Below, piece after piece: positions 421 to 12,010 of a stretch of 14,345 nt of DNA. Position 1 is the stretch's first letter; each line of letters starts with the position of its first letter. The stretch lies in contig JABDRH010000651.1 of the NCBI GenBank assembly GCA_013041835.1, positions 1 to 14,345 on the forward strand. Direction: 5' to 3'. This stretch comes from Desulfatitalea sp. (GTDB lineage Bacteria; Desulfobacterota; Desulfobacteria; Desulfobacterales; Desulfosarcinaceae). The translations under genes and the position numbers were made by a program. The notes below the pieces were generated by a model. That model had not been told where the DNA came from. It saw nothing but the letters and a program-made list of their open reading frames with translations, and made no database searches.

Positions 421-906
421 TTACGCAGGTTTGATGCTGCCGGGTTCCCCGGTTATCCAAACGGCTGTCAGCTTAACATGCGTGAATTTCCATCCTTCTG
501 GTGTTCGGATATGCTTGCAGTCATACCATCCTCCGGCATCCCAATGATCCAGTGGATTCGTCTTCACATGCACGGCCTGAAGATAGGCGCGTGATGATGC
601 CGTATCGTCTGTGATAACAATCTGATGATTGGTGCTGATATGGTGTGTCGCCGTATAACCAGTGATTAACCCTTTGCGTAAAAAGTCCTCCATTTCATTA
701 CGATGGATAGTAATGGCCGCGCCGGATTTTGATGCCGGATCGGGCAGTTCAAGGATAGCGTCTTGTGTATAATTATCGATATATCCGACCACATCCTTCG
801 TATCGAGCGCACGGGCAAAGCTGAATAAGAGCTCGCTTATCAGCGCTCGGTCCACCAGCCACTGAACTTTTTCCACAAATGAATCATCCTCTTTTTCTAA
901 TTTCAT
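421..906 (-). CDS. SnoaL-like / NTF2-fold protein (SnoaL_4 type)
   Basis: The 161-aa protein has the layout of the SnoaL_4 group of the NTF2-like superfamily. An N-terminal helix (residues 17-35, ending FARALDTKD) leads to a YTQDAILELPD segment, then to THHISTNHQIVITDDTASSRAYLQ (88-110) and a C-terminal sheet ending in a GWKFTHVKLTAVW-type strand (138-150). Relatives include polyketide cyclases, dehydratases and ring-hydroxylating dioxygenase small subunits, and many are uncharacterised, so no substrate is assigned. I chose ATG 906 over the upstream in-frame ATG at 936 because GAGGTG sits 8 nt before it and it starts one base after the monooxygenase stop (TAA at 908-910). It is almost certainly cotranscribed with that gene; a shared role on a small aromatic or quinone-like molecule is inference. 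Confidence 0.8.
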   Translation of the reverse strand: MKLEKEDDSFVEKVQWLVDRALISELLFSFARALDTKDVVGYIDNYTQDAILELPDPASKSGAAITIHRNEMEDFLRKGLITGYTATHHISTNHQIVITDDTASSRAYLQAVHVKTNPLDHWDAGGWYDCKHIRTPEGWKFTHVKLTAVWITGEPGSIKPA

Positions 907-907
907 T

Positions 908-1219
908 TTAATACACCTCTTTACGCGTGAATCCATCTATTTCTTCGAAAAATTCGATCTCCGGCGCACGCATTAGAAATTGATCGAGCTGTTTTATCAG
1001 TTCTTGGACGTACGGGGTTGACATGTGATCATCGCATGCTTGCTGATCACGATATTTCTCATAGAACAAAAACCGGCTGGCGTCTTTCTGGCTGCGGTGA
1101 AGTGTATAGGTTACCGTTCCTTGCTCATGCCTGACGCTTGGAATGATATCTTTCAGCAGCTTTTCCAACTCTTGCGCTTTTTCCGGTTGTGCTTGCAGGA
1201 TTACTTTTACTGCGATCAT
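908..1219 (-). CDS. ABM-family (YgiN-like) putative monooxygenase
   Basis: This 103-aa protein has the compact ferredoxin-like dimeric alpha-beta barrel pattern of the antibiotic biosynthesis monooxygenase family (PF03992, YgiN-like). The visible elements are a first strand MIAVKVILQAQPEK, helix AQELEKLLKDIIPSVR, the family hallmark EQGTVTYTLHRS (32-43), then FLFYEKYRDQQACDDHMSTPY (50-70) with His41 and His65. Family members act without cofactor on quinols or polyphenols; others are of unknown function. I chose ATG 1219 because AAGGA lies 8 nt upstream, whereas ATG 1228 has its SD directly abutting and longer starts run back into the helicase gene. It begins 25 bp after the helicase stop with no convincing terminator between, so it may share the upstream transcript. 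Confidence 0.82.
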   Translation of the reverse strand: MIAVKVILQAQPEKAQELEKLLKDIIPSVRHEQGTVTYTLHRSQKDASRFLFYEKYRDQQACDDHMSTPYVQELIKQLDQFLMRAPEIEFFEEIDGFTRKEVY

Positions 1220-1244
1220 GTCGAACATCCTTTCGGTTGAGTCG

Positions 1245-2999
1245 TTAAAAAAGAGACATCTGGCCTTGAAGATCCAGCGCCATGCCGTATTCATCCTCGA
1301 AATCGGCCTGGACGCGCTGGATCAGATCCGGCGTGAGGCCGGAAACCGTTGCGGTAATTGTATTGTTTCGTGTATTCGCGGCCAGGTTGCTGACACGGCA
1401 ACCTTCGGGCAACATGGAGCGTAGCAGCGTTCGGGGGCTGACCGCGCCGTTTTTACGGTTGGGCGGTTCATAGACCACGTGGCGGCAGGTGGCTCTCTTC
1501 AGGTGCCACTTCAGATAGGCATAACGTTCGTTTTGCGTCTCCGGCTCCCGGAATTGGATGCGCACCGTCGTTTCATCGATCTGCAGCCTGGCGCCCACGC
1601 ACCCTGCCTGTTTTAATATTTCGCGGATCGATTCGCGGGCCCGGCTGATCGTGCAGTCTTGCTCCCCTGGTTCATAATGGAGCACCGGCTCTCCATCCAG
1701 GCCGGCGGTGACCACTTCCGGCGGCAACCGCATCAATATGGATTGGACCTCTTCCAGGCTGGATGCTTCGCGCAGGCGCAGGAACGCATCCGTGCAGGTG
1801 ACTTTGATCCCGGAAAATGACCGGGCCTGGCGGAAGGGGTCGGCGCCGCGGCTCTGCCACTTTTTGGGCAGTCCGGCCATCTGGGTGGCGCCATACTGCA
1901 GTTGGTGGGTGCTGCGGTCGACGATGTCGATCACGACACAGGCCGCTTTGCCGGGAGCGGTGCGCAGACCTCTTCCGATGCACTGGGTGTAGACCAGCGG
2001 CGATGTGGTGGGCCGGGCCATCAGGATACAGGCCACGGTGGGGTCATCAAATCCCTCGGTGAGCACCCCATAGTTGGTCAACACCTGGATCTGTCCTTTG
2101 TCAAAACGGTTCAGGATCTCGCCGCGGTCCTTGCTTTTGCCGTCGATCTTCTCGGCGCTGATGCCCATGGCGGAAAAATCCGCGGCCAACTGGCCGGCAT
2201 GCTCGACGCCGGCGCAAAAGACGATGGTTTTTCGGCCTTGCCCCTGTTCAAACCACGCTTGCAGGGTCAAGGCCCTGGTGGCCGGGGCGTTCATCACCCG
2301 GGAAAGGGCGCCCACTTGAAAATCACCGGCCGACATTTTTAGATGGTCCAGGTTCAGATGACTTCCGACGGTGAAGTATTGCATGGGAACCAGGTAGCCC
2401 AAATCCTCCAGCTCCGTGCGGGTGATTTCAAAGGCGGTGCGGCCGAAGACATCCAGGGCGGAACGGCCGTCCGTGCGCTGAGGGGTGGCCGTCATGCCAA
2501 GCAACAGCGTGTTTTGGTCGGTCCGGGTGTGAAAGTAGTCGATCACTTCGCCCCAACTGGGCGACAGCGCGCGATGGCATTCATCACAAATGATCAGGGC
2601 ATAGGCCTTGGGATCATATTTTTCCTTGCGGCGCACCAGCGACTGGACCGATGCCAGGGTAATGTCGCCGTTGCCCCGGGCGCTGCGCTTGCCTTGCTCG
2701 ATTTGCACCTTGAGCCTGGGCAGGTGCCGGCCAATGGTGTGGGCGGTCTGATTGATAATCTCCCGGCGATGCGCGACAAAGAGCACTTTGCCGAAGGTGT
2801 TGCCGGTGCGCAAGGCCTTGATGATGTGCGTGGCGATCACGGTTTTTCCGGCGCCGGTGGGTAGATAAAGGAGCATGCGCCGCTGATGCGCTTCCTGGTA
2901 TCGCGAGACAACGGCGGCCACGGCCATTTTCTGGTAGGGCCGGAGCCGAAACGGTTTGCTCGCGGAATCGTGCCGTGTCGCTGAAGTCAGTTTAGTCAT
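1245..2999 (-). CDS. SF2 DEAD/DEAH-type helicase, fifth gene of the Wadjet operon
   Basis: This 584-aa superfamily 2 ATPase of the RAD25/XPB-like or type III-restriction-helicase-like group has all core motifs. They are LRPYQ (19-23), Walker A LPTGAGKT (46-53), AHRRE (76-80), motif II DECH (139-142), motif III GMTATP (168-173), EGFDDP (315-320) and motif VI QCIGRGLR (339-346). The helicase core takes about residues 15-375. Residues ~395-584 form a C-terminal region I do not recognise. The protein ends QMSLF (580-584), close to the bacterial sliding-clamp-binding consensus QL[SD]LF. The ATG at 2999 overlaps the jetD stop (2992-2994) by 8 bp, which ties translation to jetD. Its SD is weak, as expected for coupled re-initiation. 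No nuclease motif is visible. Its role in defence is inferred from the gene order only. Confidence 0.93.
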   Translation of the reverse strand: MTKLTSATRHDSASKPFRLRPYQKMAVAAVVSRYQEAHQRRMLLYLPTGAGKTVIATHIIKALRTGNTFGKVLFVAHRREIINQTAHTIGRHLPRLKVQIEQGKRSARGNGDITLASVQSLVRRKEKYDPKAYALIICDECHRALSPSWGEVIDYFHTRTDQNTLLLGMTATPQRTDGRSALDVFGRTAFEITRTELEDLGYLVPMQYFTVGSHLNLDHLKMSAGDFQVGALSRVMNAPATRALTLQAWFEQGQGRKTIVFCAGVEHAGQLAADFSAMGISAEKIDGKSKDRGEILNRFDKGQIQVLTNYGVLTEGFDDPTVACILMARPTTSPLVYTQCIGRGLRTAPGKAACVVIDIVDRSTHQLQYGATQMAGLPKKWQSRGADPFRQARSFSGIKVTCTDAFLRLREASSLEEVQSILMRLPPEVVTAGLDGEPVLHYEPGEQDCTISRARESIREILKQAGCVGARLQIDETTVRIQFREPETQNERYAYLKWHLKRATCRHVVYEPPNRKNGAVSPRTLLRSMLPEGCRVSNLAANTRNNTITATVSGLTPDLIQRVQADFEDEYGMALDLQGQMSLF

Positions 3000-4131
3000 G
3001 TCCGGTATCTTGTATCAAAGCAGCAATAATGTCTTCGGTGGTCAGGCCCTCCTGGGGCCAGCGCACGCTGCCGGCGTTTTGCAGGTACAGGCCTGCCAGG
3101 TCCGGCCCCAGCCACTGGCGCGCCAGATCCGGGTAGTGCAGTTTGGCATGGCTGGGGTCGGCGGGCGCCGACAGGTTCTTTTTCAATAAGGCCTGGTAGA
3201 GACGCCGATGGGCGAGCAGAAGCGGCATCCGGTTTTTCTCCCGATACCGGTTGATGCGAAAAGCAATGTAGATACCGGGGGGATCCAGGTCGCCGAAGTA
3301 GTGGATGCCGGCGGTGTTCAGCCGGGTTTCGATGTCTCGCAGGCCGTCGTTCGCGCGTTCCGCGGCGCCTTCGGTCTCCCGGTCAGGACGGCTTTGCGTC
3401 TCCCGTTTGGCCGCGCAGGCTGCAAAACCCCGGCCGTACACAACGGCGCCGTAGTGATGCAGGGCGTCGTTGGCCTGGCAGCAACTCCAGTAGGTATTGG
3501 CATTTTCCACGACCAGCAAGGGTTTTCCCCGGGTCTGCCTTGGGTCCAGGGAAAAGGCAAGATACGGCAGCGGCTCGGGGCAGTAAAAGCAATCCAGGGC
3601 ATCCAGGGAGAGGCGGCCGCCAAACAGGCCGCTGCGCACATAGGTGTCCAGGGCCTTTTCATCGCCGAAGATCTCCAGGGCGCGCTCGCGGTGGGGCACG
3701 CGGATCGGTGCCGGTGGGCGCCGGAGCAGGTATTGGTTCACCTGCGCGGCGCGTTTCAGCTCGGCCAGGGTGCGCAGCTTGGGGCCGATGGCCACCATCC
3801 AAGTGGGCTCCCAGGCCGTTTTATGGCGCAGATCGTCCAGGACTTTCCGGTTGGCCTGGTGTTTGGCATCCGCTTCGATGCGTACGGCGGTGACGTATCG
3901 CGGCAGCCCGGTCCGGTCGGTCCACGATTTTTTTTTGTTCCTGGGCAGGCGCAGGTGGTTTTGCTTTTCGAGTTCTTTCAAGGTTTCCAGAAGACGTCGC
4001 TGGATTTCGAAATCAGTCATCAATCCGATGGGCAGGCGGCGGACGGCCGTCTCGAGCTGCGCCACGTATACTTTTTTCAGGCGGCTGGCCCCAAGGGCTT
4101 GCCGTATGGCGTCATGCCAGAGGCGGTCCAT
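2992..4131 (-). CDS. jetD: Wadjet subunit JetD, DUF3322/DUF2220 Toprim nuclease
   Basis: This is the Toprim-type nuclease subunit of Wadjet (MksG/EptD equivalent), which in characterised systems cleaves plasmid DNA trapped by the SMC motor. The 379-aa length is typical. The N-terminal winged-helix-like part (1-140) leads to the DUF3322 hallmark RERALEIFGDEK (148-159). The Toprim core follows: Glu209 in LLVVENANTYWS, a VVYGRGFA strand-turn (230-237), and the acidic pair Asp281 and Asp283 in HYFGDLDPPG. All three expected metal-binding acids are present, so the nuclease looks intact. The ATG at 4131 is preceded by AAAGGA and overlaps the end of jetC by 20 bp; the gene overlaps the helicase start by 8 bp. 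The insert at 242-262 is charged and probably a flexible loop. Confidence 0.92.
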   Translation of the reverse strand: MDRLWHDAIRQALGASRLKKVYVAQLETAVRRLPIGLMTDFEIQRRLLETLKELEKQNHLRLPRNKKKSWTDRTGLPRYVTAVRIEADAKHQANRKVLDDLRHKTAWEPTWMVAIGPKLRTLAELKRAAQVNQYLLRRPPAPIRVPHRERALEIFGDEKALDTYVRSGLFGGRLSLDALDCFYCPEPLPYLAFSLDPRQTRGKPLLVVENANTYWSCCQANDALHHYGAVVYGRGFAACAAKRETQSRPDRETEGAAERANDGLRDIETRLNTAGIHYFGDLDPPGIYIAFRINRYREKNRMPLLLAHRRLYQALLKKNLSAPADPSHAKLHYPDLARQWLGPDLAGLYLQNAGSVRWPQEGLTTEDIIAALIQDTGHD

Positions 4132-7100
4132 CGGTCCTTTCCACGTTCAATTCGTTGACTTCCAGCAGATCGTAAGCGACGCGGTCAATCTCCAGCTTTT
4201 TATCCCCTTTGCGGATGGCCACGCGCAGTTCGAAGAGGCCCAGCGATTCCCGATCGTTGATGCCGGTCAGGTAGACACACTGAATCCCCATGGCCCGGGC
4301 CACTTTCAGCTGCACATCCAAAAAATCCGACCGGTTGCATACGCCCAGCGGGTTGTCCAGCACGAGAAAGGCGGGGATTCGCCCGTCGGGATGATTGTGG
4401 CGTTTTTTTCGCATGGAGATAAGTAGGGTATAAAGGAGCACCGCCGTGGTCAAGGCTTCGCCGCCCGACCCCAGGTCCTTGCCCACCGGTTCGTAGTTGT
4501 GACCGGTATCGTCGCATTTGAGCAGGCGGATGCCGAAGCTTTTTTTGCCCGTGGACGCGGCCAGCAACTGGTAGAGCAGTTCGCCGCCCAGGCAGTTTCC
4601 CGCGCGCGGGTTCACTTCGGGCAGGCGGTCTTTTTGAATCAGCTCGTGGAGCCAGTTTTCCACCGAACGTTTGAAATCGTTGCCATACCGGGTGAAGTCC
4701 AGCCGGGTGCCGGCGCGCAGGATGCTTTCGCCACCGTAAATAAAGATGTCCTTGGGCAGTTTCTGCTGGGCCGCGGTCTGCAGCTTCTGGTGATATTCCT
4801 TGGCGCGCGAAAGCAGCATGTCCACCAGGTTTTCCACGATGCGCTGGGAAATTTCCAGGTCGCTTTCGATGTTGCTGGCGATCTGATCACAGCGCTGAAT
4901 CAGTTCTTCGGCCTGGGTGCCCAGGGCTTCGGTGTCATACCGCCGCAATTCATCGACCACCGCCGGCAGGTGGTTGCGAAAACGATCGCTTTGAAGGTCG
5001 GCCTGGAGGCGGTCGAAACCGTTGCTCATCCGCCTGCGCGCGGCATCCATGACCGTGTGTTCTTTCTCCCGGGCGGTTTTGCTTACGCGCACCTGGTCCC
5101 GCAAGGCCTTCACGGCTTCTATTTTTTCAGCGGCCGAGGATGCGCCGAGAAGATCCGGCCAGGCGGATCGGGGCGAATCGCCATCCCATAGCGGCGCATA
5201 ATCCTCGGTTTCGGCCAGGCCGATCTGGATCTGCTGGCACCAGTTATTATGATGGTCGAGGGAAGCCCGAAGTTCCCGGCATCGTTGGCTCAGACGTTCC
5301 GTGGTCTGCTCGTGTCGACCGGCCTCGCTTTGGAGCCGATGGATCAGGCCGTCCGGGTCCTGGTCGGCCAGGTCCGATTCCGACACGTCGGGGTGAATGT
5401 TGTTGCGGCCGTGTTCGGCCAGTGCTTCGCCCAGTTGGTCGATCTCCCGGTTCTGGTATGTCATGTCCGATCGCAGGCCGCCTAGGGTACCGCTTCGTTT
5501 CTCAATCTCGCCGGCCAGCCACACCCGGCGTTGCTCGCGCTCCGAACTTTTTCCGGCGGCCCACCGGTCGGCCTGGGCAAAGTCGTGGGGATATTCCCGG
5601 CGCAGGGTTTGCAGCCGCGCCTCGTGATCCGCGATGGCGTTCTGCACGACCTCCAGCTCGGTTTGCAGGGCGTCGACGCCCAACTCATCGGCCTTGCGGC
5701 GCTGGCTCCGGCGGGCTTCCGAGAACAACTCCCGCAACGTCGTCAGATCCATGGTCAAGGCGGCCTGGTTCTGTTCTTCGGAAAGGACGGCTTCCTGGGG
5801 TTTAGGCACATCACCGGCCCGCTCGTCCAATCCGGTGAGCAGGTACCGGCTGTGGCGGATGTCGCCCACCAGGACGGTGATCTCTTCCTGATGATGCAAA
5901 AGGACTTTGGCTTCGCCGCCGATTTGGGTGGTCAATGCTGTTTTTGCGGCGATCATCGCCTCGCCCTCCCCCTTCCAGGTGTCCAGATCCCGGTAGCGGT
6001 CCAGCCATCCGTCCACCTGGCGCAACTGCTCGGTAAGCCGGGCCGCGTCGATGGTAAGGTCCTGGATGGTATTTTGCACTTCGGTCTTGCGCTGCCCCAG
6101 GGTGTCGGAAAGGATTTCGGCATCGGCGATTTCAGAAGTCAACCCGGCCAGGGTGCGATCCAGCTCCGCCAGCCGGTCGCTCAGGGCCGACACCACGGTC
6201 GCGTCGGCAAACATCTCCCGGTAGGCATGAAGGTCCCGGCTGTCGGCCGCCATCTCCCGGAGGTCGGCGGCCGATACCCCCACCTCCTGTTCCATGGCCG
6301 CCAATTGCGCCTTGAGCCGGTTGCGCGTCTCTTCCAGGTAACTCTCGGCATAAACCTTGGGATCCTGGGGACGGATCACTGCCTGCGCGATGGTGGTCAG
6401 GGCGTCGGGGGGACAGGGCGTGGAAATGACCACGGGCCGGTGAAGCCAGTGGGGTACGGGCAACTGCATCACCGTATCGACCACTCCCGCGCTGGCGGCC
6501 ATGATCCCGGTGAACCGGCCGGGGTCGCTCTCCACGAACGTGGCGACTTGCCCGGGTTGTTCGTACAGGCCGGCCAGGTAGTCGGGAAAAGCCTTGAGCT
6601 CGCCGGGGCTGATGCCCTGGGCGTGGTAGTGGGCGATCAGCTTGCGGGTCTGGGCATCGCCGGCCAGCGTCTGGATGCCGGATAGTTGTTCCAGCTCCAT
6701 TTCCACGTTCAGACGGCGGCGCTCCTTTTCCGCCAGGCGCTCCCTTGCCCGGGTAATGGCATCGTCAAGCCGGGACAAAAGCGCCGCGGATGTCGGCTCG
6801 AAATCCGGCGTGCCGGCTACCCGCTGCAGATGAGCAGAGGCCAGGAGCCTTTCGCGCTGCCGGGCCTCGGCATCCACGCGTTGCCGGGCCTGGTCCCGAA
6901 AGATCTCGGTTTCAGAGCGCTTTTTTTGCAGCGCCCGCCACTGGGTCACGGCGTTGCGCATCTTCTCGTCGAAATCGGCGAGACGCCCCTGTTCGGCGGT
7001 GATACGCTCCTCTATGCGGTGGATTTGCCCCTGCAGGCGGTCGTGGGCGTTTTCAGGCGTTTCTCCCGGCGCCAGCGGCAATGCCTCCCGGTTTTGTTCG

Positions 7101-8515
7101 GCGGCCTGGATGCGGGTGGTGTTGGCGCCCATCTTTTCTCCAAGGGCCTCGCGCTGAGCCTCAAGGTCGGCGCGCCGTGCTTCGGATGTCTTGACAGCGG
7201 ATTGCAGATCGGCAATGCGCTCTTGCCATTGCGCGATGTCATCCATGATGCCTTGACGGTCGCTGTCGAGCCGGGCGTGGTATTGCAGCGCCATGTCGTC
7301 GACCCGGCGCAGCAGGGGCGAAAGCGCCGCGTCCGCCTGAAGCAGGGCATCCTGCTTGATCTGGACCTGGGCCCGGTTTCGCCGCAGTTGGGCGATGATA
7401 TCCGCGGATTTCAGGGCGTTTTCTTCCATGCGGAAGGATTGGATCTCCCGCTCGGTCCGGGCGATCTCTTTTTCGGCCTGGTCGAGCTGTCCTTGCAACT
7501 GGTAACGCCGCACCACCGCCACGTTGGCCCGGGCCACCGCAGTTTGGGTCAACGCCTCCCGGCGCTGGTTTTCCGCTTTTTGCAGTGACGGCGCCAGCAA
7601 TTTTGTTTCCTTTTCAGCCCCCTGGTTGGCCTGCTGGATGAGATGGGCGGCTTCACCGAGAACGGCCTGAAAGGATTCAACGGCGCTTTGCGCATCGCGC
7701 CATTTGCGGGCCAGGCCGTCAAAGTCGGCCATCCGCTCCTTGAGGTCCCGCGCGGCGCGCAATTGGGCGATTTTTCGCGGACGGTCTTCCATTTTTCTCA
7801 GGGACCGGCCAATGTTTTCACGCAAGTCGGCGGCTGCGTCCATGTCCGTCACGCAGCCCAGAAAAAAGTTCAAGAACTCATCCTCGGACCGGAATTTGAA
7901 GGCATCCTTGATCCCGCCCTCGCTGCGGGCAAAGTCGATCTGGCGATCGATCAGCCAGGGGTCCAGGCCCAACCGTTCCAGGGAGTCGGACCACTCTTTC
8001 TGGTTGTGGGTCTGCTGGACATGGGGAGACGCAAAATCCCTTACAGCACGCCAGGGCTGTTCCTGGTCCAGGAGGGCGTCCCAACCCGCCCGCAACTGTT
8101 CGAAAAAAGCCACCGACTGAGCGATGAAGAATATCCGGTCCACCTTGTCCTTGGCGCTGCGATGGCGGTACAGAAGCTGGCCGAGAACCAGATGTTCCTC
8201 GGGTTCGGCCTCGAACAAGGTCGGCTGCTGCACGCAGGCCACATCCACCAGCACCGCGGCGGGGCGGCCAGGGATCAAATATTGATCCAGGGTCTTGTCT
8301 CCGCCGGACTGAAGATGCTGAACAAAGCGCCGTTCATGGGGGCTGAAGACGCTGAGCACAAATGACAACACGGTGGTTTTGCAGGTGCCGTTGGCGGCAA
8401 AAAGCACGCCGTGGTCCGCCCGGCCGTTATCCCTTACGATGGGAATACATCCGTTGCGCAGCAGGTTCTTGCCGGCGGTGACATCGCTGATGAAAAATTT
8501 ACAGAGTCGATACAT
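4112..8515 (-). CDS. jetC: Wadjet subunit JetC, SMC/MukB-like coiled-coil ATPase
   Basis: This 1467-aa protein has SMC-type architecture: an N-terminal ATPase head (1-245), a long Gln/Arg/Glu-rich coiled coil (~250-610), a globular hinge-like section (~612-720), a return coil (~725-1240) and a C-terminal head. The head carries an ABC signature LGSGGE (1348-1353) and a Walker B strand AFLVLDN (1382-1388). In Wadjet/Mks complexes this subunit is the ATP-driven loop-extrusion motor. Two catalytic motifs are atypical. The P-loop reads AANGTCKTT (40-48), with Ala and Cys where GxxxxGK has glycines, and the Walker B Glu is Asn1388. I chose ATG 8515 because the protein then starts MYRLCKFF just ahead of the head domain, with AGAGGA upstream. 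The 45 residues encoded above it are Arg/Thr-rich and lie over jetB. It overlaps jetB by 17 bp and jetD by 20 bp. It seems longer than the ~1100 aa I recall for type I JetC. Confidence 0.9.
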   Translation of the reverse strand: MYRLCKFFISDVTAGKNLLRNGCIPIVRDNGRADHGVLFAANGTCKTTVLSFVLSVFSPHERRFVQHLQSGGDKTLDQYLIPGRPAAVLVDVACVQQPTLFEAEPEEHLVLGQLLYRHRSAKDKVDRIFFIAQSVAFFEQLRAGWDALLDQEQPWRAVRDFASPHVQQTHNQKEWSDSLERLGLDPWLIDRQIDFARSEGGIKDAFKFRSEDEFLNFFLGCVTDMDAAADLRENIGRSLRKMEDRPRKIAQLRAARDLKERMADFDGLARKWRDAQSAVESFQAVLGEAAHLIQQANQGAEKETKLLAPSLQKAENQRREALTQTAVARANVAVVRRYQLQGQLDQAEKEIARTEREIQSFRMEENALKSADIIAQLRRNRAQVQIKQDALLQADAALSPLLRRVDDMALQYHARLDSDRQGIMDDIAQWQERIADLQSAVKTSEARRADLEAQREALGEKMGANTTRIQAAEQNREALPLAPGETPENAHDRLQGQIHRIEERITAEQGRLADFDEKMRNAVTQWRALQKKRSETEIFRDQARQRVDAEARQRERLLASAHLQRVAGTPDFEPTSAALLSRLDDAITRARERLAEKERRRLNVEMELEQLSGIQTLAGDAQTRKLIAHYHAQGISPGELKAFPDYLAGLYEQPGQVATFVESDPGRFTGIMAASAGVVDTVMQLPVPHWLHRPVVISTPCPPDALTTIAQAVIRPQDPKVYAESYLEETRNRLKAQLAAMEQEVGVSAADLREMAADSRDLHAYREMFADATVVSALSDRLAELDRTLAGLTSEIADAEILSDTLGQRKTEVQNTIQDLTIDAARLTEQLRQVDGWLDRYRDLDTWKGEGEAMIAAKTALTTQIGGEAKVLLHHQEEITVLVGDIRHSRYLLTGLDERAGDVPKPQEAVLSEEQNQAALTMDLTTLRELFSEARRSQRRKADELGVDALQTELEVVQNAIADHEARLQTLRREYPHDFAQADRWAAGKSSEREQRRVWLAGEIEKRSGTLGGLRSDMTYQNREIDQLGEALAEHGRNNIHPDVSESDLADQDPDGLIHRLQSEAGRHEQTTERLSQRCRELRASLDHHNNWCQQIQIGLAETEDYAPLWDGDSPRSAWPDLLGASSAAEKIEAVKALRDQVRVSKTAREKEHTVMDAARRRMSNGFDRLQADLQSDRFRNHLPAVVDELRRYDTEALGTQAEELIQRCDQIASNIESDLEISQRIVENLVDMLLSRAKEYHQKLQTAAQQKLPKDIFIYGGESILRAGTRLDFTRYGNDFKRSVENWLHELIQKDRLPEVNPRAGNCLGGELLYQLLAASTGKKSFGIRLLKCDDTGHNYEPVGKDLGSGGEALTTAVLLYTLLISMRKKRHNHPDGRIPAFLVLDNPLGVCNRSDFLDVQLKVARAMGIQCVYLTGINDRESLGLFELRVAIRKGDKKLEIDRVAYDLLEVNELNVERTDGPPLA

Positions 8516-9284
8516 CTTCGTCCTCTTCCGGCTCGTCGACCGATGCCGCCTGCGTATGCGCCGCAAGGATGTCCCTGAAAGCGTGGAACGAATAGACGAT
8601 CCCTTCGCGCAGGGAGGTCTGGTAGGCCGGCGTGGGGCGGTATTCCACATCGCCGGGAGTCTCTTCGAACTGCAACAGGTAGCCGGTCTCCACCAGATGT
8701 TCCAGGACCCGGCTCACCAGGTCCACCCAGGAGTTGCCGGCGCCGGCCCGCAGACGGTCCGGGTTTTCTTCGGGCAGTTCGCGCAGGCGCCGGGCCACGG
8801 TGCGCACCTGGGGGTGCAGCCGGTCCTCCTGCTCGGGCAGGTCGGCTTCGACCTGGGAAAAGCGCCGCAGGATGTCGATCACATCGTTCATCACAATGGC
8901 GCCCAGGTCCTCCACCGGCATGTCCAGATCCGCCTCCGTGGGAAAAAAAGCGGCGGCGATGGCGCAATGCACCGGCAGCACATCCGCGGCCTTGAGATCA
9001 CCGCGGGCCAGCAGCCGACCATAGTCGGTGAGCGTGGTCGCGAAAAAGGCGTCGGCATTGCGGGCCGACAGACGCAGTCCGCCATCTTCCAGGGCCAGCA
9101 GCCGCAGTTCCAAGGCCCGCAACCCCTCCTCGACGGCCGCGCGGAAAGCATCTTCTGCCTGGAAGCGCTGCACCAGTTCGGTCATTTCGGCGCTGTTCTG
9201 GGTCACGATGCGTTTTTTGCCGCTGCTGTAAGCCAGGCTCAGGTAGATGAGCCGGCTGACCGGGTAAATCGTCTCGTCGCTCAT
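8499..9284 (-). CDS. jetB: Wadjet subunit JetB, MukE/MksE-like KITE protein (probable)
   Basis: This 261-aa acidic protein lies between the kleisin candidate and the SMC ATPase, where Wadjet, Muk and Mks operons encode the KITE subunit that bridges kleisin and motor. The sequence is largely helical with two winged-helix-like sections: residues ~1-100, including ELRLLALEDGGLRLS, and ~170-250, including WVDLVSRVLEHLVETGYLLQFEE. It ends in an acidic tail (DEPEEDEDVSTL). I do not recognise the DUF4194 pattern of type I JetB, so the name rests on position, size and fold impression. The ATG at 9284 overlaps the jetA stop as ATGA, with AAGGA 6 nt upstream, so translation is coupled. The tail is encoded by the 17 bp shared with jetC. 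Confidence 0.72.
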   Translation of the reverse strand: MSDETIYPVSRLIYLSLAYSSGKKRIVTQNSAEMTELVQRFQAEDAFRAAVEEGLRALELRLLALEDGGLRLSARNADAFFATTLTDYGRLLARGDLKAADVLPVHCAIAAAFFPTEADLDMPVEDLGAIVMNDVIDILRRFSQVEADLPEQEDRLHPQVRTVARRLRELPEENPDRLRAGAGNSWVDLVSRVLEHLVETGYLLQFEETPGDVEYRPTPAYQTSLREGIVYSFHAFRDILAAHTQAASVDEPEEDEDVSTL

Positions 9285-10894
9285 GGGGTATCCTTGCGTC
9301 GTTGCAAAGCGGGCTGGTGGTTCAATCGAAGTTCATGGCCCCGGTAGCGTCGGCCGGCGCACAGGTCCACGGTCACCCGCAGGCCGGGATCGGGCATCGA
9401 CACCCGGATCTGATACCGGGCGGCCACGCGCCGTTCCACCGTACATTGAAAAACGGCCATGGCCACCGCCACGGGAAACAGGTCGCCATTGTGCGAGGCT
9501 TGGCACCGATGGGAGGCCTTTTCCAGCAAACGGCTGAGCAGGACCTCACCGTCGCGTTGCACCGTCGCGTGCAACATTTCAAAAGCCATGCGCATTTGCG
9601 CTTCGGTCAGGTCGGAGACAAAGCGTTCGATTGGGGCGCCGTCGATTTCATGGATGCTCTGGGTGCGGTCGCCGGGTATATTTTGCCGTTCCAGGGCCCG
9701 GTCGCAGGCTTCGATCACCGCGGCCGGGTCGAACAGGCAGCGCTGGGCCGGCGGGTCGATGCGGGCGATAAACTCGGTGCCCACCCGCGCCGCGTCATCC
9801 TCGCCCAGCCGGCACAAGCGGCGCATCACCTCCTCCATGGCGGGAAAGGCGCCCAGCACCCGCCGCCGGAAGAGCTTGAAACTGTGGTAGTGATAGTCCT
9901 CCGGAAGCTGCTGCAGTTCGCCCGAGAGTTTGATCAACTGGTTGTTGAGTCGCTCCAGCATTTCGGCCAAGCGGTGAAGTTTGGCCTCGTGTTGCTTCTT
10001 GGGAGCGGCCAGCAGGTTCTCGACGACCATGGTGTGCAGCCGCTGCCCTTCTTTCTGGATGGTGGTGGCCTGGTTCACCCCCTCATCGGCCAGGGCCCGC
10101 ACCTGATCGAAGTCCACGGCGTGAATATTACGCCGGATCTGGCGCCGCACGTTGCGCATCTCCAGGGCCTTTCGGGCGCACTGCTTGCGGTTGCCGTCGG
10201 CCACGAGGATGGCATCGTCGACATTGCCTCGTTCGATAAGCAGCTTGATCCGCAGGTTGCCGATGGCCGTGGCATCCAGGGCGCTGGTCTCATAGAGGCC
10301 GAAATAGGCCGCGTATCCCTCGTCGGTGAGCGTAAACAGCGCTTCGTGTCCCTCTCCGGTATACACGGTCTTGATCAACCAGAACCGGCGGGTCCGGTAG
10401 CGGCCGGCGGCGGCGTTAAACCACGTGTAACGAAAGGGCAGATAGCGCTCTTGACGGTTGACCAGGTGATCGAACACCTTGTTAAGCACCTCGGTCAGCC
10501 CCTCCCGGGTGGCTTCGATACCGCATGCCGCCACTTGCCCGCGCGCCAGGGGCAAAATCTTTTCCATGACCTCGGCGCGGGTGGCGCCGGACTGGTACTC
10601 GGTCAGCTCCGAGATCACATCCAGCACGGCAAAAGCGATCCACAGCGCGTCGACACCCTCCCAGATGGCGTTGGTGTCATCGGTGTCGCTTGGCCGGAAG
10701 CGGCGGGACGCCAGCTCGAAAATCGGCCGCATGATCGAAGCGGAAAAGACCGCCCGGCTGACATCCGCCTGGAAACCGGGGTCTTTCACAGCCCCCGACG
10801 CGTCGGCCGGAGATGCATCCGCCCGAATCGCCGCACCTTCAGCCGCCTTTTGTTGCCGCTGAACGAATTCGATGATGTCGAGTTGAATAGCCAT
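9281..10894 (-). CDS. jetA: Wadjet subunit JetA, MukF/MksB-like kleisin (probable)
   Basis: This 537-aa protein heads the operon in the slot occupied by the kleisin in jet/mks/ept operons. It has a short N-terminal segment (MAIQLDIIEFVQR), an Ala/Asp-rich linker (~17-44), then a mostly helical middle with winged-helix-like features. The region FTLTDEGYAAYFGLYE followed by a DATAIGNLRIKLLIERGNVDDAI helix resembles the MukF/MksB pattern. A long helical, coiled-coil-prone stretch (~290-345) and a C-terminal domain with PVAVAMAVFQCTVERRVA follow. I do not see the DUF3375 pattern of type I JetA, so the assignment rests on order, size and helical layout. No strong SD precedes the ATG at 10894, but a consensus-like promoter gives a roughly 25-nt leader. 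The last four bases overlap jetB. Confidence 0.72.
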   Translation of the reverse strand: MAIQLDIIEFVQRQQKAAEGAAIRADASPADASGAVKDPGFQADVSRAVFSASIMRPIFELASRRFRPSDTDDTNAIWEGVDALWIAFAVLDVISELTEYQSGATRAEVMEKILPLARGQVAACGIEATREGLTEVLNKVFDHLVNRQERYLPFRYTWFNAAAGRYRTRRFWLIKTVYTGEGHEALFTLTDEGYAAYFGLYETSALDATAIGNLRIKLLIERGNVDDAILVADGNRKQCARKALEMRNVRRQIRRNIHAVDFDQVRALADEGVNQATTIQKEGQRLHTMVVENLLAAPKKQHEAKLHRLAEMLERLNNQLIKLSGELQQLPEDYHYHSFKLFRRRVLGAFPAMEEVMRRLCRLGEDDAARVGTEFIARIDPPAQRCLFDPAAVIEACDRALERQNIPGDRTQSIHEIDGAPIERFVSDLTEAQMRMAFEMLHATVQRDGEVLLSRLLEKASHRCQASHNGDLFPVAVAMAVFQCTVERRVAARYQIRVSMPDPGLRVTVDLCAGRRYRGHELRLNHQPALQRRKDTP

Positions 10895-10926
10895 TGTCTG
10901 TTTCGGAAAGCCCTTTTTTTCGACGG

Positions 10927-10955
10927 AATATACCGGATTGCCTTTCGGTTTTCAA
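10927..10955 (-). promoter_or_regulatory. sigma70-type promoter of the jet operon
   Basis: Reading the minus strand, TTGAAA (10950-10955) is separated by exactly 17 bp from TATATT (10927-10932), a close match to the sigma70 consensus with ideal spacing. Transcription would begin near 10920 and give a leader of about 25 nt before the jetA ATG. The only other intergenic gap in the five-gene block is none at all (all junctions overlap), so this is the natural promoter for the whole operon. Confidence 0.7.
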
Positions 10956-11148: not shown

Positions 11149-11367
11149 TCACCTGCACCAGGATTGCTCAGGTTGACCACTTCCGCCCGCTTTCAATTCG
11201 AGGCCCAACCAGGATTCGATCTTTGCCGCGATGAACCCGATCAATCGTTTGGGGTCGAAGTGATCCAACGCTACAAAGTCGTCCGCGTTGGAAACAATGA
11301 TATTAATGATGCTTATTTGGGGCAGGCCGACAAGCGGTGTTCCCTTGTCGCATTCTATTTCGTCCAA
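11149..11367 (-). pseudogene. 72-codon coding-like remnant downstream of vapC
   Basis: This open stretch can only start at TTG 11367, directly after an in-frame TGA and without an SD, and it contains no internal ATG. The translation reads like protein (PLVGLPQISIINIIV, DDFVALDHFDPKRLIGFIAAKIESWLGLELK) but I do not recognise a family. The frame closes at 11149-11151. A different minus-strand frame then stays open past 11180 with protein-like residues (NPGAGDDFLGYSF), which would fit a frameshifted older gene. Its start overlaps the vapC end by 13 bp, so coupled translation from TTG cannot be excluded. Best read as the tail of a decayed gene. Confidence 0.3.
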
Positions 11368-11759
11368 TTTTCAATTTTAAGGTGATCGACCCTTTGGAAT
11401 TCTTTCTCATTGTTCGTGACGAGTACAATATCATTACTTAAAGCATGAGCAGCTATCAGCATATCTAATGGGCCAATGATCTCTCCTCTTTTTTCTAAAT
11501 TCAGTCGAACTTCACCATAGGATTTAGCGGCTACATAATCATATAAAAGAATCTCTATTGGCATGAGAAATTCTTCAACGCGCTGCAAATTCAGCTTGGG
11601 GTTTTTGCTTTTCGCTGCTCCGTACTGCAGCTCTGAAACCGTTATGATTGAGACACCAATGTCACCAACATCGAACTTCTTAAATTTATGTATGATTTCT
11701 GAGGGCCTTCGATTCATTATATAAATACAGATATTTGTATCCAATAAATATTTAATCAA
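11355..11759 (-). CDS. vapC: VapC toxin, PIN-domain ribonuclease
   Basis: This complete 134-aa PIN-domain toxin has the acidic active site in place: Asp7 in YLLDTNICIY, Glu43 in VSELQYGA, Asp99 in GPLDMLIAAHA, and the TNNEKEF segment (115-121) near the end. The order and spacing match the enteric VapC/MvpT group, whose characterised members cleave initiator tRNA(fMet); that target is inferred from family resemblance. It starts at TTG 11759, which overlaps the vapB stop by 8 bp. A GGAG lies about 10 nt upstream, so synthesis is coupled to vapB and probably kept lower than the antitoxin. The region is clearly more AT-rich than the jet genes. Confidence 0.93.
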   Translation of the reverse strand: MIKYLLDTNICIYIMNRRPSEIIHKFKKFDVGDIGVSIITVSELQYGAAKSKNPKLNLQRVEEFLMPIEILLYDYVAAKSYGEVRLNLEKRGEIIGPLDMLIAAHALSNDIVLVTNNEKEFQRVDHLKIENWTK

Positions 11760-11988
11760 GACCGTCTCGCTCCTGTTGTTGACTAGGCTGGCGCCTATCC
11801 ATCATAAACGCAGTATCATATTTCATTAGATTCTTTTCCCAAAGATCCCAAACAGATTGATTTTTAGAAATTAAAAGCACACCTTCTGCAACCTTCTTAA
11901 TATACACTTCGTTACCCTCGAACCTGAAAGCCTTTGGTAAACGCACGGCTTGGCTACGTCCATTATTGAATAATTTAGCAGTTTTCAT
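11752..11988 (-). CDS. vapB: VapB antitoxin, AbrB/SpoVT-type
   Basis: This 78-aa antitoxin begins with the swapped-hairpin AbrB/MazE-like DNA-binding motif KTAKLFNNGRSQAVRLPKAFRF (residues 2-23), followed by EVYIKKVAEGVLLIS. The C-terminal part, including VWDLWEKNLMKYD, would wrap the VapC toxin. Two ATGs are possible (11994 and 11988). GGAGG directly abuts the first but sits 6 nt before the second, so I chose 11988; the longer form adds only Met-Ala. VapB, alone or with VapC, should repress its own promoter through the palindrome at 12011-12026. Confidence 0.92.
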   Translation of the reverse strand: MKTAKLFNNGRSQAVRLPKAFRFEGNEVYIKKVAEGVLLISKNQSVWDLWEKNLMKYDTAFMMDRRQPSQQQERDGLD

Positions 11989-12010
11989 TGCCATCCTCCC
12001 GAACTTGGTT

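What the first reader, a model, noticed from the sequence alone, without database searches (positions are those of the whole stretch)
1245..10955. Wadjet-type SMC defence operon with a fifth gene, an SF2 helicase
The sequence shows kleisin-like, KITE-like, SMC ATPase and Toprim nuclease genes followed by a complete SF2 helicase, all junctions overlapping by 4-20 bp behind one good promoter. Known Wadjet systems are described as four-gene jetABCD (types I-III). A helicase bound into the same coupled unit suggests an expanded system in which unwinding or translocation adds to loop extrusion and cleavage. JetD is clear; JetA and JetB do not show the type I DUF3375/DUF4194 patterns, so this may be a separate branch.
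Basis: partly seen in the sequence, partly recalled or inferred. Interest (0 to 1): 0.85.

Follow-up and report, generated by a model that had tools for sequence, protein, structure and literature searches.

The report
Type III Wadjet operon plus helicase
A bacterial anti-plasmid gene set of a known kind (a divergent type III Wadjet) carries, in one family of sulfate-reducing bacteria, a fifth gene for a DNA helicase whose tail looks like a handle for the replication clamp, hinting at a link between plasmid destruction and DNA replication.

Summary
The five-gene operon is real. JetA, JetC and JetD match PADLOC type III Wadjet models (E 7e-28, 4e-67, 6e-57): a divergent branch of known type III, not a new type. 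JetB matches no model, but resembles the JetB of a Pandoraea type III locus. The helicase is a complete RadD-like SF2 protein ending QMSLF, a fit to the published clamp-binding consensus QxxLF; 110 of the 120 listed homologues end so. Of 30 family genomes, 5 have JetD and all 5 have the helicase behind it (one with a gene between); 1 of the 25 others has it, beside recC. Of 22 JetD genomes in 389 of the class, 17 lack it. No downstream flank is shared among the five loci, and helicase dS falls within the jet genes' range in 5 of 6 genome pairs. It is probably a module member in one clade, dispensable elsewhere. Its role (clamp-guided action on replicating or cut plasmids) is inference. The helicase family is common in other phyla, where I could not read neighbours. 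New variant of a known kind; moderately interesting.

The parts
10927..10955 (-). Promoter: -35 TTGAAA, 17-nt spacer, -10 TATATT
   Evidence: Pattern scan; TTGAAA and TATA conserved in the 4 five-gene loci aligned
9281..10894 (-). jetA, type III, kleisin-like by position (537 aa)
   Evidence: PADLOC JetA3 E 7e-28; 73-76% identical in three loci of the family
8499..9284 (-). jetB, KITE-like by position (261 aa)
   Evidence: No relevant HMM match; 28% to the Pandoraea JetB, E 8e-9, which hits JetB3 at 1e-6; 83-84% in three loci of the family
4112..8515 (-). jetC, SMC-type ATPase (1467 aa from MYRLCKFF)
   Evidence: PADLOC JetC3 E 4e-67; start by homologue alignment
8372..8398 (-). Unusual P-loop AANGTCKTT in JetC (Cys before the Lys)
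   Evidence: 72 of the 75 sequences found (window included) have the Cys
2992..4131 (-). jetD, Toprim nuclease (379 aa)
   Evidence: PADLOC JetD3 E 6e-57; Toprim E and DxD invariant in 20 of 20 rows
1245..2999 (-). Fifth gene: SF2 helicase/ATPase of RadD-like type (584 aa)
   Evidence: Pfam ResIII E 3e-34 and Helicase_C E 1e-13; RadD structure 6jde E 3e-33 over residues 17-367; 8-bp overlap with jetD
1248..1262 (-). C-terminal QMSLF, putative sliding-clamp-binding motif
   Evidence: 110 of 120 listed homologues (window included) end in QxxLF; last residues better conserved than the stretch before them

Best explanation
This is a divergent type III Wadjet (JetABCD) anti-plasmid operon. In one Desulfosarcinaceae lineage it has captured a fifth, overlapping gene for a RadD-like SF2 ATPase/helicase with a C-terminal sliding-clamp-binding tail. 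JetABC would reel in small circular DNA and activate the Toprim nuclease JetD to cut it (inferred from studied Wadjets). The helicase would be brought by the clamp to replicating or gapped DNA. There it would either clear obstacles in the extruder's path (R-loops, replication intermediates) or open the cut plasmid for exonucleases such as RecBCD and stop its repair. Shown by sequence: operon structure, type III profiles for three of four subunits, a conserved promoter, the helicase's intact motifs and tail, conserved neighbourhood in one family, similar divergence of the five genes. Inferred: that the helicase acts in plasmid defence, that the tail binds the clamp, and the step at which it acts.
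For: Type III HMM matches. Of 30 family genomes, 5 have JetD and all 5 have the helicase behind jetD on the same strand; 1 of 25 without JetD has it (Fisher p 4e-5 ignoring relatedness). In the host's own genus 10 of 11 genomes lack both at the thresholds used. Among the five loci no downstream flank (1.2-4.6 kb available) is shared, and only G011 and G017 share an upstream flank. Helicase dS lies within the range of the four jet genes in 5 of 6 genome pairs and slightly above it in the sixth (window, G011, G013, G017). Helicase dN/dS is 0.11-0.20 among the five linked copies. QxxLF at the very end in 110 of 120 homologues; consensus from passages of PMC12309361 and PMC4549789.
Against: 17 of 22 JetD-bearing genomes in the class lack the helicase at E 1e-100 and, where their system is whole, presumably work without it. 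The helicase family is common elsewhere: 3256 of 8000 scored candidates match at E 1e-3, and all 120 listed are at least 60% identical, several named as Myxococcota. Of the 97 more distant listed homologues (P0144-P0240) none shares a contig length with the 120 listed JetD relatives (a weak test). The clamp tail is equally conserved in those homologues, so it was not acquired for Wadjet. One close copy sits beside recC without Jet on its 8-kb contig. In G012 a LysE gene lies between a frame-split jetD and the helicase. All linked cases are in one family. No test of function exists.
Confidence: 0.5

Rival explanations
1. The helicase is a stand-alone clamp-associated repair helicase that travels as a passenger in the operon. 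Co-transcription is convenient, and it repairs damage in general, with no role in plasmid restriction.
For: Common family outside this Wadjet branch; orphan copy beside recC; clamp tail shared by nearly all listed homologues; most related Wadjets lack it.
Against: In the family it is rare without Jet (1 of 25). It keeps its place behind jetD although the downstream flanks differ, and its divergence is like that of the jet genes. A plain repair gene would be expected more often without Jet.
Confidence: 0.33
2. The helicase is a safety factor: it protects or repairs the host chromosome from JetD cuts or SMC-replisome collisions, working at forks through the clamp.
For: Clamp-type tail; RadD relatives act in genome maintenance and R-loop limitation (abstract and section headings of PMC6606805; abstract starts); the orphan's neighbour is recC.
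Against: The 17 helicase-less JetD genomes in the class have no such factor of this family. No direct evidence.
Confidence: 0.12
3. Chance neighbourhood: a chromosomal helicase gene that happens to lie downstream of jetD in one lineage.
For: All linked cases belong to one family.
Against: 8-bp overlap in the window, no shared downstream flank among the five loci, absence of the gene from 24 of 30 family genomes.
Confidence: 0.05

Closest known systems
Wadjet type III (jetA3B3C3D3, PADLOC/Doron classification)
   Same: Gene order ABCD; JetA3, JetC3 and JetD3 HMM matches; Toprim residues; DNP where SMC proteins have Walker B D-E, also in the four outgroup type III JetC looked at.
   Different: JetB too diverged for the JetB3 models; Cys P-loop in JetC; a fifth helicase gene in the Desulfosarcinaceae branch.
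RadD/YejH (SF2 DNA repair ATPase)
   Same: SF2 core 17-367 matches the RadD structure (E 3e-33) and the NCBIfam RadD model (156 bits).
   Different: Far below the RadD cut-off (156 of 720 bits); matches RadD only over the SF2 core; ends in QMSLF. The host has another gene closer to RadD on contig C344 (248 bits, also below the cut-off).
Wadjet type I / MksBEFG / EptABCD
   Same: SMC, kleisin, KITE and Toprim composition as described in PMC10586767 (passages read).
   Different: Best HMM matches are type III, not I or II.

Membership tests
Wadjet type III | JetD with Toprim nuclease, type III profile | tested here: met
   JetD3 E 6e-57; E209, D281, D283 invariant in 20 of 20 rows. Pfam JetD_C only 15.5 bits, below its cut-off of 22
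Wadjet type III | JetC SMC-type ATPase, type III profile | tested here: met
   JetC3 E 4e-67 over nearly full length
Wadjet type III | JetA type III profile | tested here: met
   JetA3 E 7e-28
Wadjet type III | JetB type III profile | tested here: inconclusive
   No match for the window or 3 of 3 other clade members tried; 28% to the Pandoraea JetB, which hits JetB3 at 1e-6
Wadjet type III | Operon order jetABCD | tested here: met
   same order in relatives, with jetD set apart from jetABC in several
Wadjet type III | Blocks plasmid transformation | not testable with these tools
New Wadjet subtype by the PADLOC authors' criteria (PMC8565338, passages read) | Conserved operon-like architecture of the added gene | tested here: met
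   5 of 5 family loci with JetD, one with an inserted gene
New Wadjet subtype by the PADLOC authors' criteria (PMC8565338, passages read) | Diverse genetic contexts | tested here: met
   No shared downstream flank in the 1.2-4.6 kb available; one shared upstream pair
New Wadjet subtype by the PADLOC authors' criteria (PMC8565338, passages read) | Distribution across distantly related organisms | tested here: not met
   Helicase only in the host's family among 389 class genomes; 1 of 395 phylum genomes, that one being the host
New Wadjet subtype by the PADLOC authors' criteria (PMC8565338, passages read) | Added gene rarely an orphan | tested here: inconclusive
   1 orphan of 6 in the class sample; common family in other phyla whose neighbours could not be read
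RadD | NCBIfam equivalog score at or above 720 bits | tested here: not met
   156 bits
Clamp-binding proteins | QL[S/D]LF or QxxLF motif, here at the C-terminus | tested here: met
   C-terminal QMSLF; 110 of 120 listed homologues end in QxxLF
Clamp-binding proteins | Physical binding to the beta clamp | not testable with these tools
   -

The most novel reading that the evidence does not exclude
A five-gene Wadjet (JetABCD plus a clamp-tethered helicase) in which the replication clamp marks replicating plasmids for the SMC nuclease, so that plasmid recognition is tied to replication as well as to circle size. This happens in a type III branch whose SMC motor has a non-canonical Cys P-loop and lacks the usual Walker B glutamate.
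Probability: 0.22. Interest if true: 0.7.

Novelty: new variant of a known kind. Interest (0 to 1): 0.42.

Why it matters
How Wadjet tells plasmids from chromosomes, and what happens to DNA after JetD cuts it, are open points. A helicase built into the operon and carrying a clamp-type tail gives a direct genetic handle on whether replication state or DNA processing feeds into restriction. The branch also looks structurally unexplored: sequence searches of the PDB copy found no meaningful match for its JetA (best E 0.34), JetB (best E 0.75), JetC (none at 1e-3) or JetD (none at 0.1 by profile), and its SMC ATPase motifs are unusual.

Tried and rejected
Considered a new Wadjet type: rejected, because type III profiles match three of four subunits. 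Considered chance adjacency: unlikely on flanks, overlap and co-occurrence. Considered that the helicase is the genome's ordinary RadD: unlikely, since another gene on contig C344 scores higher on the RadD model (248 against 155 bits; both below the cut-off of 720). Considered that helicases follow jetD widely: nine proteins near jetD in helicase-less loci and the RecC of L064 were scanned and none is an SF2 helicase; this is only a sample of the neighbours. Considered that the ABM and SnoaL-like genes downstream belong to the unit: no related locus shares them. Helicase in mobile elements: best 47% in one viral contig (80 best of 416 loci kept), under 60% in all phage records matched, 37% in two plasmids at E 1e-50. 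JetD in viral contigs: none; in plasmids 5 records, best 36%. One search gave 8 of 345 phylum genomes: the host, four hits at E 1e-4 to 5e-4 that I did not follow, and G409, G559 and G604, in whose fetched stretches I found diverged Jet genes and no relative of the helicase at E 1e-4. Of the 17 helicase-less JetD genomes, at least G095, G122 and G243 have broken jet genes; the genome searches scored the three best helicase candidates of each genome. The helicase tree (125 sequences, midpoint root) puts the orphan G021 copy beside the linked ones in a 21-member clade (support 1.0), but its exact place is weak (0.51), so the order of gain and loss is open.

Literature: searches (30 of 4545 papers listed; 22 of 22; 10 of 17; 15 of 19) combined Wadjet with helicase, type III, Walker and accessory-gene terms. 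None of the titles and abstract starts listed concerns a helicase-bearing Wadjet. Passages were read of PMC10586767, PMC4549789, PMC12309361, PMC12287153, PMC10123090 and PMC8565338, and the abstract and section list of PMC6606805. Most subscription papers and preprints are not held, so this does not prove absence.
Full report
What is there. The window is a stretch of contig C29 of a 4.3-Mb, 87% complete draft genome. The named relatives of its JetD are mostly Desulfosarcina and other sulfate reducers. On the minus strand five ORFs run head to tail with overlaps of 4 bp (JetA/JetB), 17 bp (JetB/JetC, taking the JetC start shared by homologues), 20 bp (JetC/JetD) and 8 bp (JetD/helicase). The promoter-like site at 10955-10927 is one of 9 found against 5.3 expected, but TTGAAA and TATA at that spacing are kept in the four five-gene loci aligned.

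What the four jet genes are. Against PADLOC-DB the best matches are JetA3 (7e-28), JetC3 (4e-67) and JetD3 (6e-57). For JetC and JetD, type I and II models score far lower; for JetA none appears. JetB has no match in PADLOC, Pfam or NCBIfam. It aligns at 28% (E 8e-9) with the JetB of a Pandoraea locus whose own four genes hit the type III models. JetD carries the Toprim acidic residues, though Pfam's JetD_C scores below its cut-off. This is a divergent type III Wadjet. In related loci of the same order JetA is 47-76%, JetB 49-84%, JetC 36-65% and JetD 39-59% identical where the genes are whole; JetC and JetD relatives also occur in Spartinivicinus.

What the fifth gene is. The 584-aa protein matches ResIII and Helicase_C and the RadD structure over residues 17-367 (E 3e-33), but scores only 156 bits on a RadD model with a cut-off of 720. 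The SF2 motifs looked at are intact. It ends in QMSLF. The published clamp-binding consensus is QL[S/D]LF, or more generally QxxLF (PMC12309361, passages), often at a C-terminus (PMC4549789, passages). Of the 120 homologues listed by the search, window included, 110 end exactly in QxxLF; most of the other ten have the motif one or two residues further in or one residue changed, and one ends otherwise. In the alignment of the 119 others the commonest residue stands at 100% for Q and 99% for F, against a mean of 55% in the stretch 540-575. No other protein of the operon ends so; JetA and JetC hold one internal QxxLF each, not followed up. Clamp binding itself is inferred.

How often it goes with Wadjet. 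Family, 30 genomes: JetD in 5, helicase at E up to 1e-120 in 6. In all 5 JetD genomes the helicase is the next jet-linked gene on the same strand; in G012 a LysE-type gene lies between and jetD itself is split over two frames. The sixth, G021, has the helicase divergent from recC and a RecB-like gene, with no Jet gene on that 8-kb contig and no JetD match in the 86% complete genome (RecC by Pfam, RecB by reading). Class, 389 genomes: JetD in 22, helicase at E up to 1e-100 in the same 6, so 17 JetD genomes lack it; some of those 17 have broken jet genes (G095, G122, G243). Phylum sample, 395 genomes: helicase only in the host. More cases are likely: D. ovata subsp. sediminis, where JetC and helicase carry locus tags two numbers apart; a 2.62-Mb contig with JetC, JetD and helicase proteins; and two metagenome contigs whose lengths match between JetD and helicase. 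Fisher p values of 4e-5 (family) and 2e-6 (class) ignore relatedness.

Is it a module member? Three lines say yes within this clade. First, the flanks: with 1.2-4.6 kb available downstream of the helicase and 0-3.5 kb upstream of the jet genes in the five loci, no two share the downstream side, and only G011 and G017 share an upstream neighbourhood, apart from a 43-bp match at the promoter. Second, divergence: in six genome pairs (window, G011, G013, G017) helicase dS lies within the range of the four jet genes in five and just above it in one (window-G011, 0.92 against 0.57-0.83); it is towards the high side throughout, and jetB is the lowest. The orphan G021 copy has dS 1.09-1.46 against four linked copies and 0.94 against G017, the last no larger than some linked pairs. 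Third, selection: helicase dN/dS among the linked copies is 0.11-0.20, like jetB (0.15-0.19) and below jetD (0.21-0.42). Against: the helicase-less relatives, the restriction to one family, and the size of the helicase family elsewhere, whose contexts I could not read.

How it most likely works. Studied Wadjets are proposed to recognise small circles by loop extrusion and to cut them through JetD (review PMC10586767, passages). Nothing here contradicts that, and nothing tests it. The helicase is read as an accessory. Its tail would bring it to the clamp on replicating or gapped DNA, where it would remove obstacles or process the cut plasmid. I put functional membership at about 0.5 and a pure passenger at about a third.

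An unasked oddity. JetC of this clade has AxNG[TS]CKTT where SMC proteins have a P-loop ending GK[ST]: of the 75 sequences found, 72 have the Cys, 2 (actinobacterial, P0314 and P0315) have GGGK and 1 is gapped. The Pandoraea (L013) and G186 (L068) proteins have GGGK and GDGK. The Walker B region reads DNP, without the usual Glu, in 72 of 75 (the other three, P0310, P0312 and P0313, are short and do not align there) and in L013 and L068. How this motor hydrolyses ATP is unknown.

Verdict. Observation confirmed. Interpretation partly supported: known type III, divergent branch, with a lineage-restricted helicase gene that behaves like a fifth member of the module. New variant of a known kind.

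Noticed in passing
window 8372-8398 (-) and homologues: JetC P-loop is AANGTCKTT: a Cys replaces the Gly before the Lys in 72 of 75 sequences, while the four outgroup type III JetC looked at keep Gly.
   Followed up: partly
window 4343-4366 (-): JetC Walker B reads LVLDNP; the residue after Asp is Asn, not Glu, also in the Pandoraea, G186 and two actinobacterial type III JetC.
   Followed up: partly
window 11355-11994 (-): VapBC-type toxin-antitoxin pair upstream of the operon: VapC NF047863, 185 bits, and VapB NF040493, 67 bits, both above the cut-off.
   Followed up: no
window 421-1228 (-): ABM monooxygenase-like and SnoaL-like genes follow the helicase closely but are not shared by the related loci compared.
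   Followed up: partly
L061, L065, L066: Decayed jet loci: jetC in pieces in G122, jetD in pieces in G243, several jet genes in pieces in G095, hinting at loss of the system in this order.
   Followed up: no
L048, L051, L054, L055, L057, L058, L060: In these related loci other genes lie between jetC and jetD, so jetD is often apart from jetABC; examples by Pfam are Nudix and histidine-phosphatase (L054) and HipA-like (L058).
   Followed up: partly
P0066: A JetD-like sequence that a source names GNAT acetyltransferase, from Desulfosarcina cetonica; possibly an effect of a frameshifted draft.
   Followed up: no
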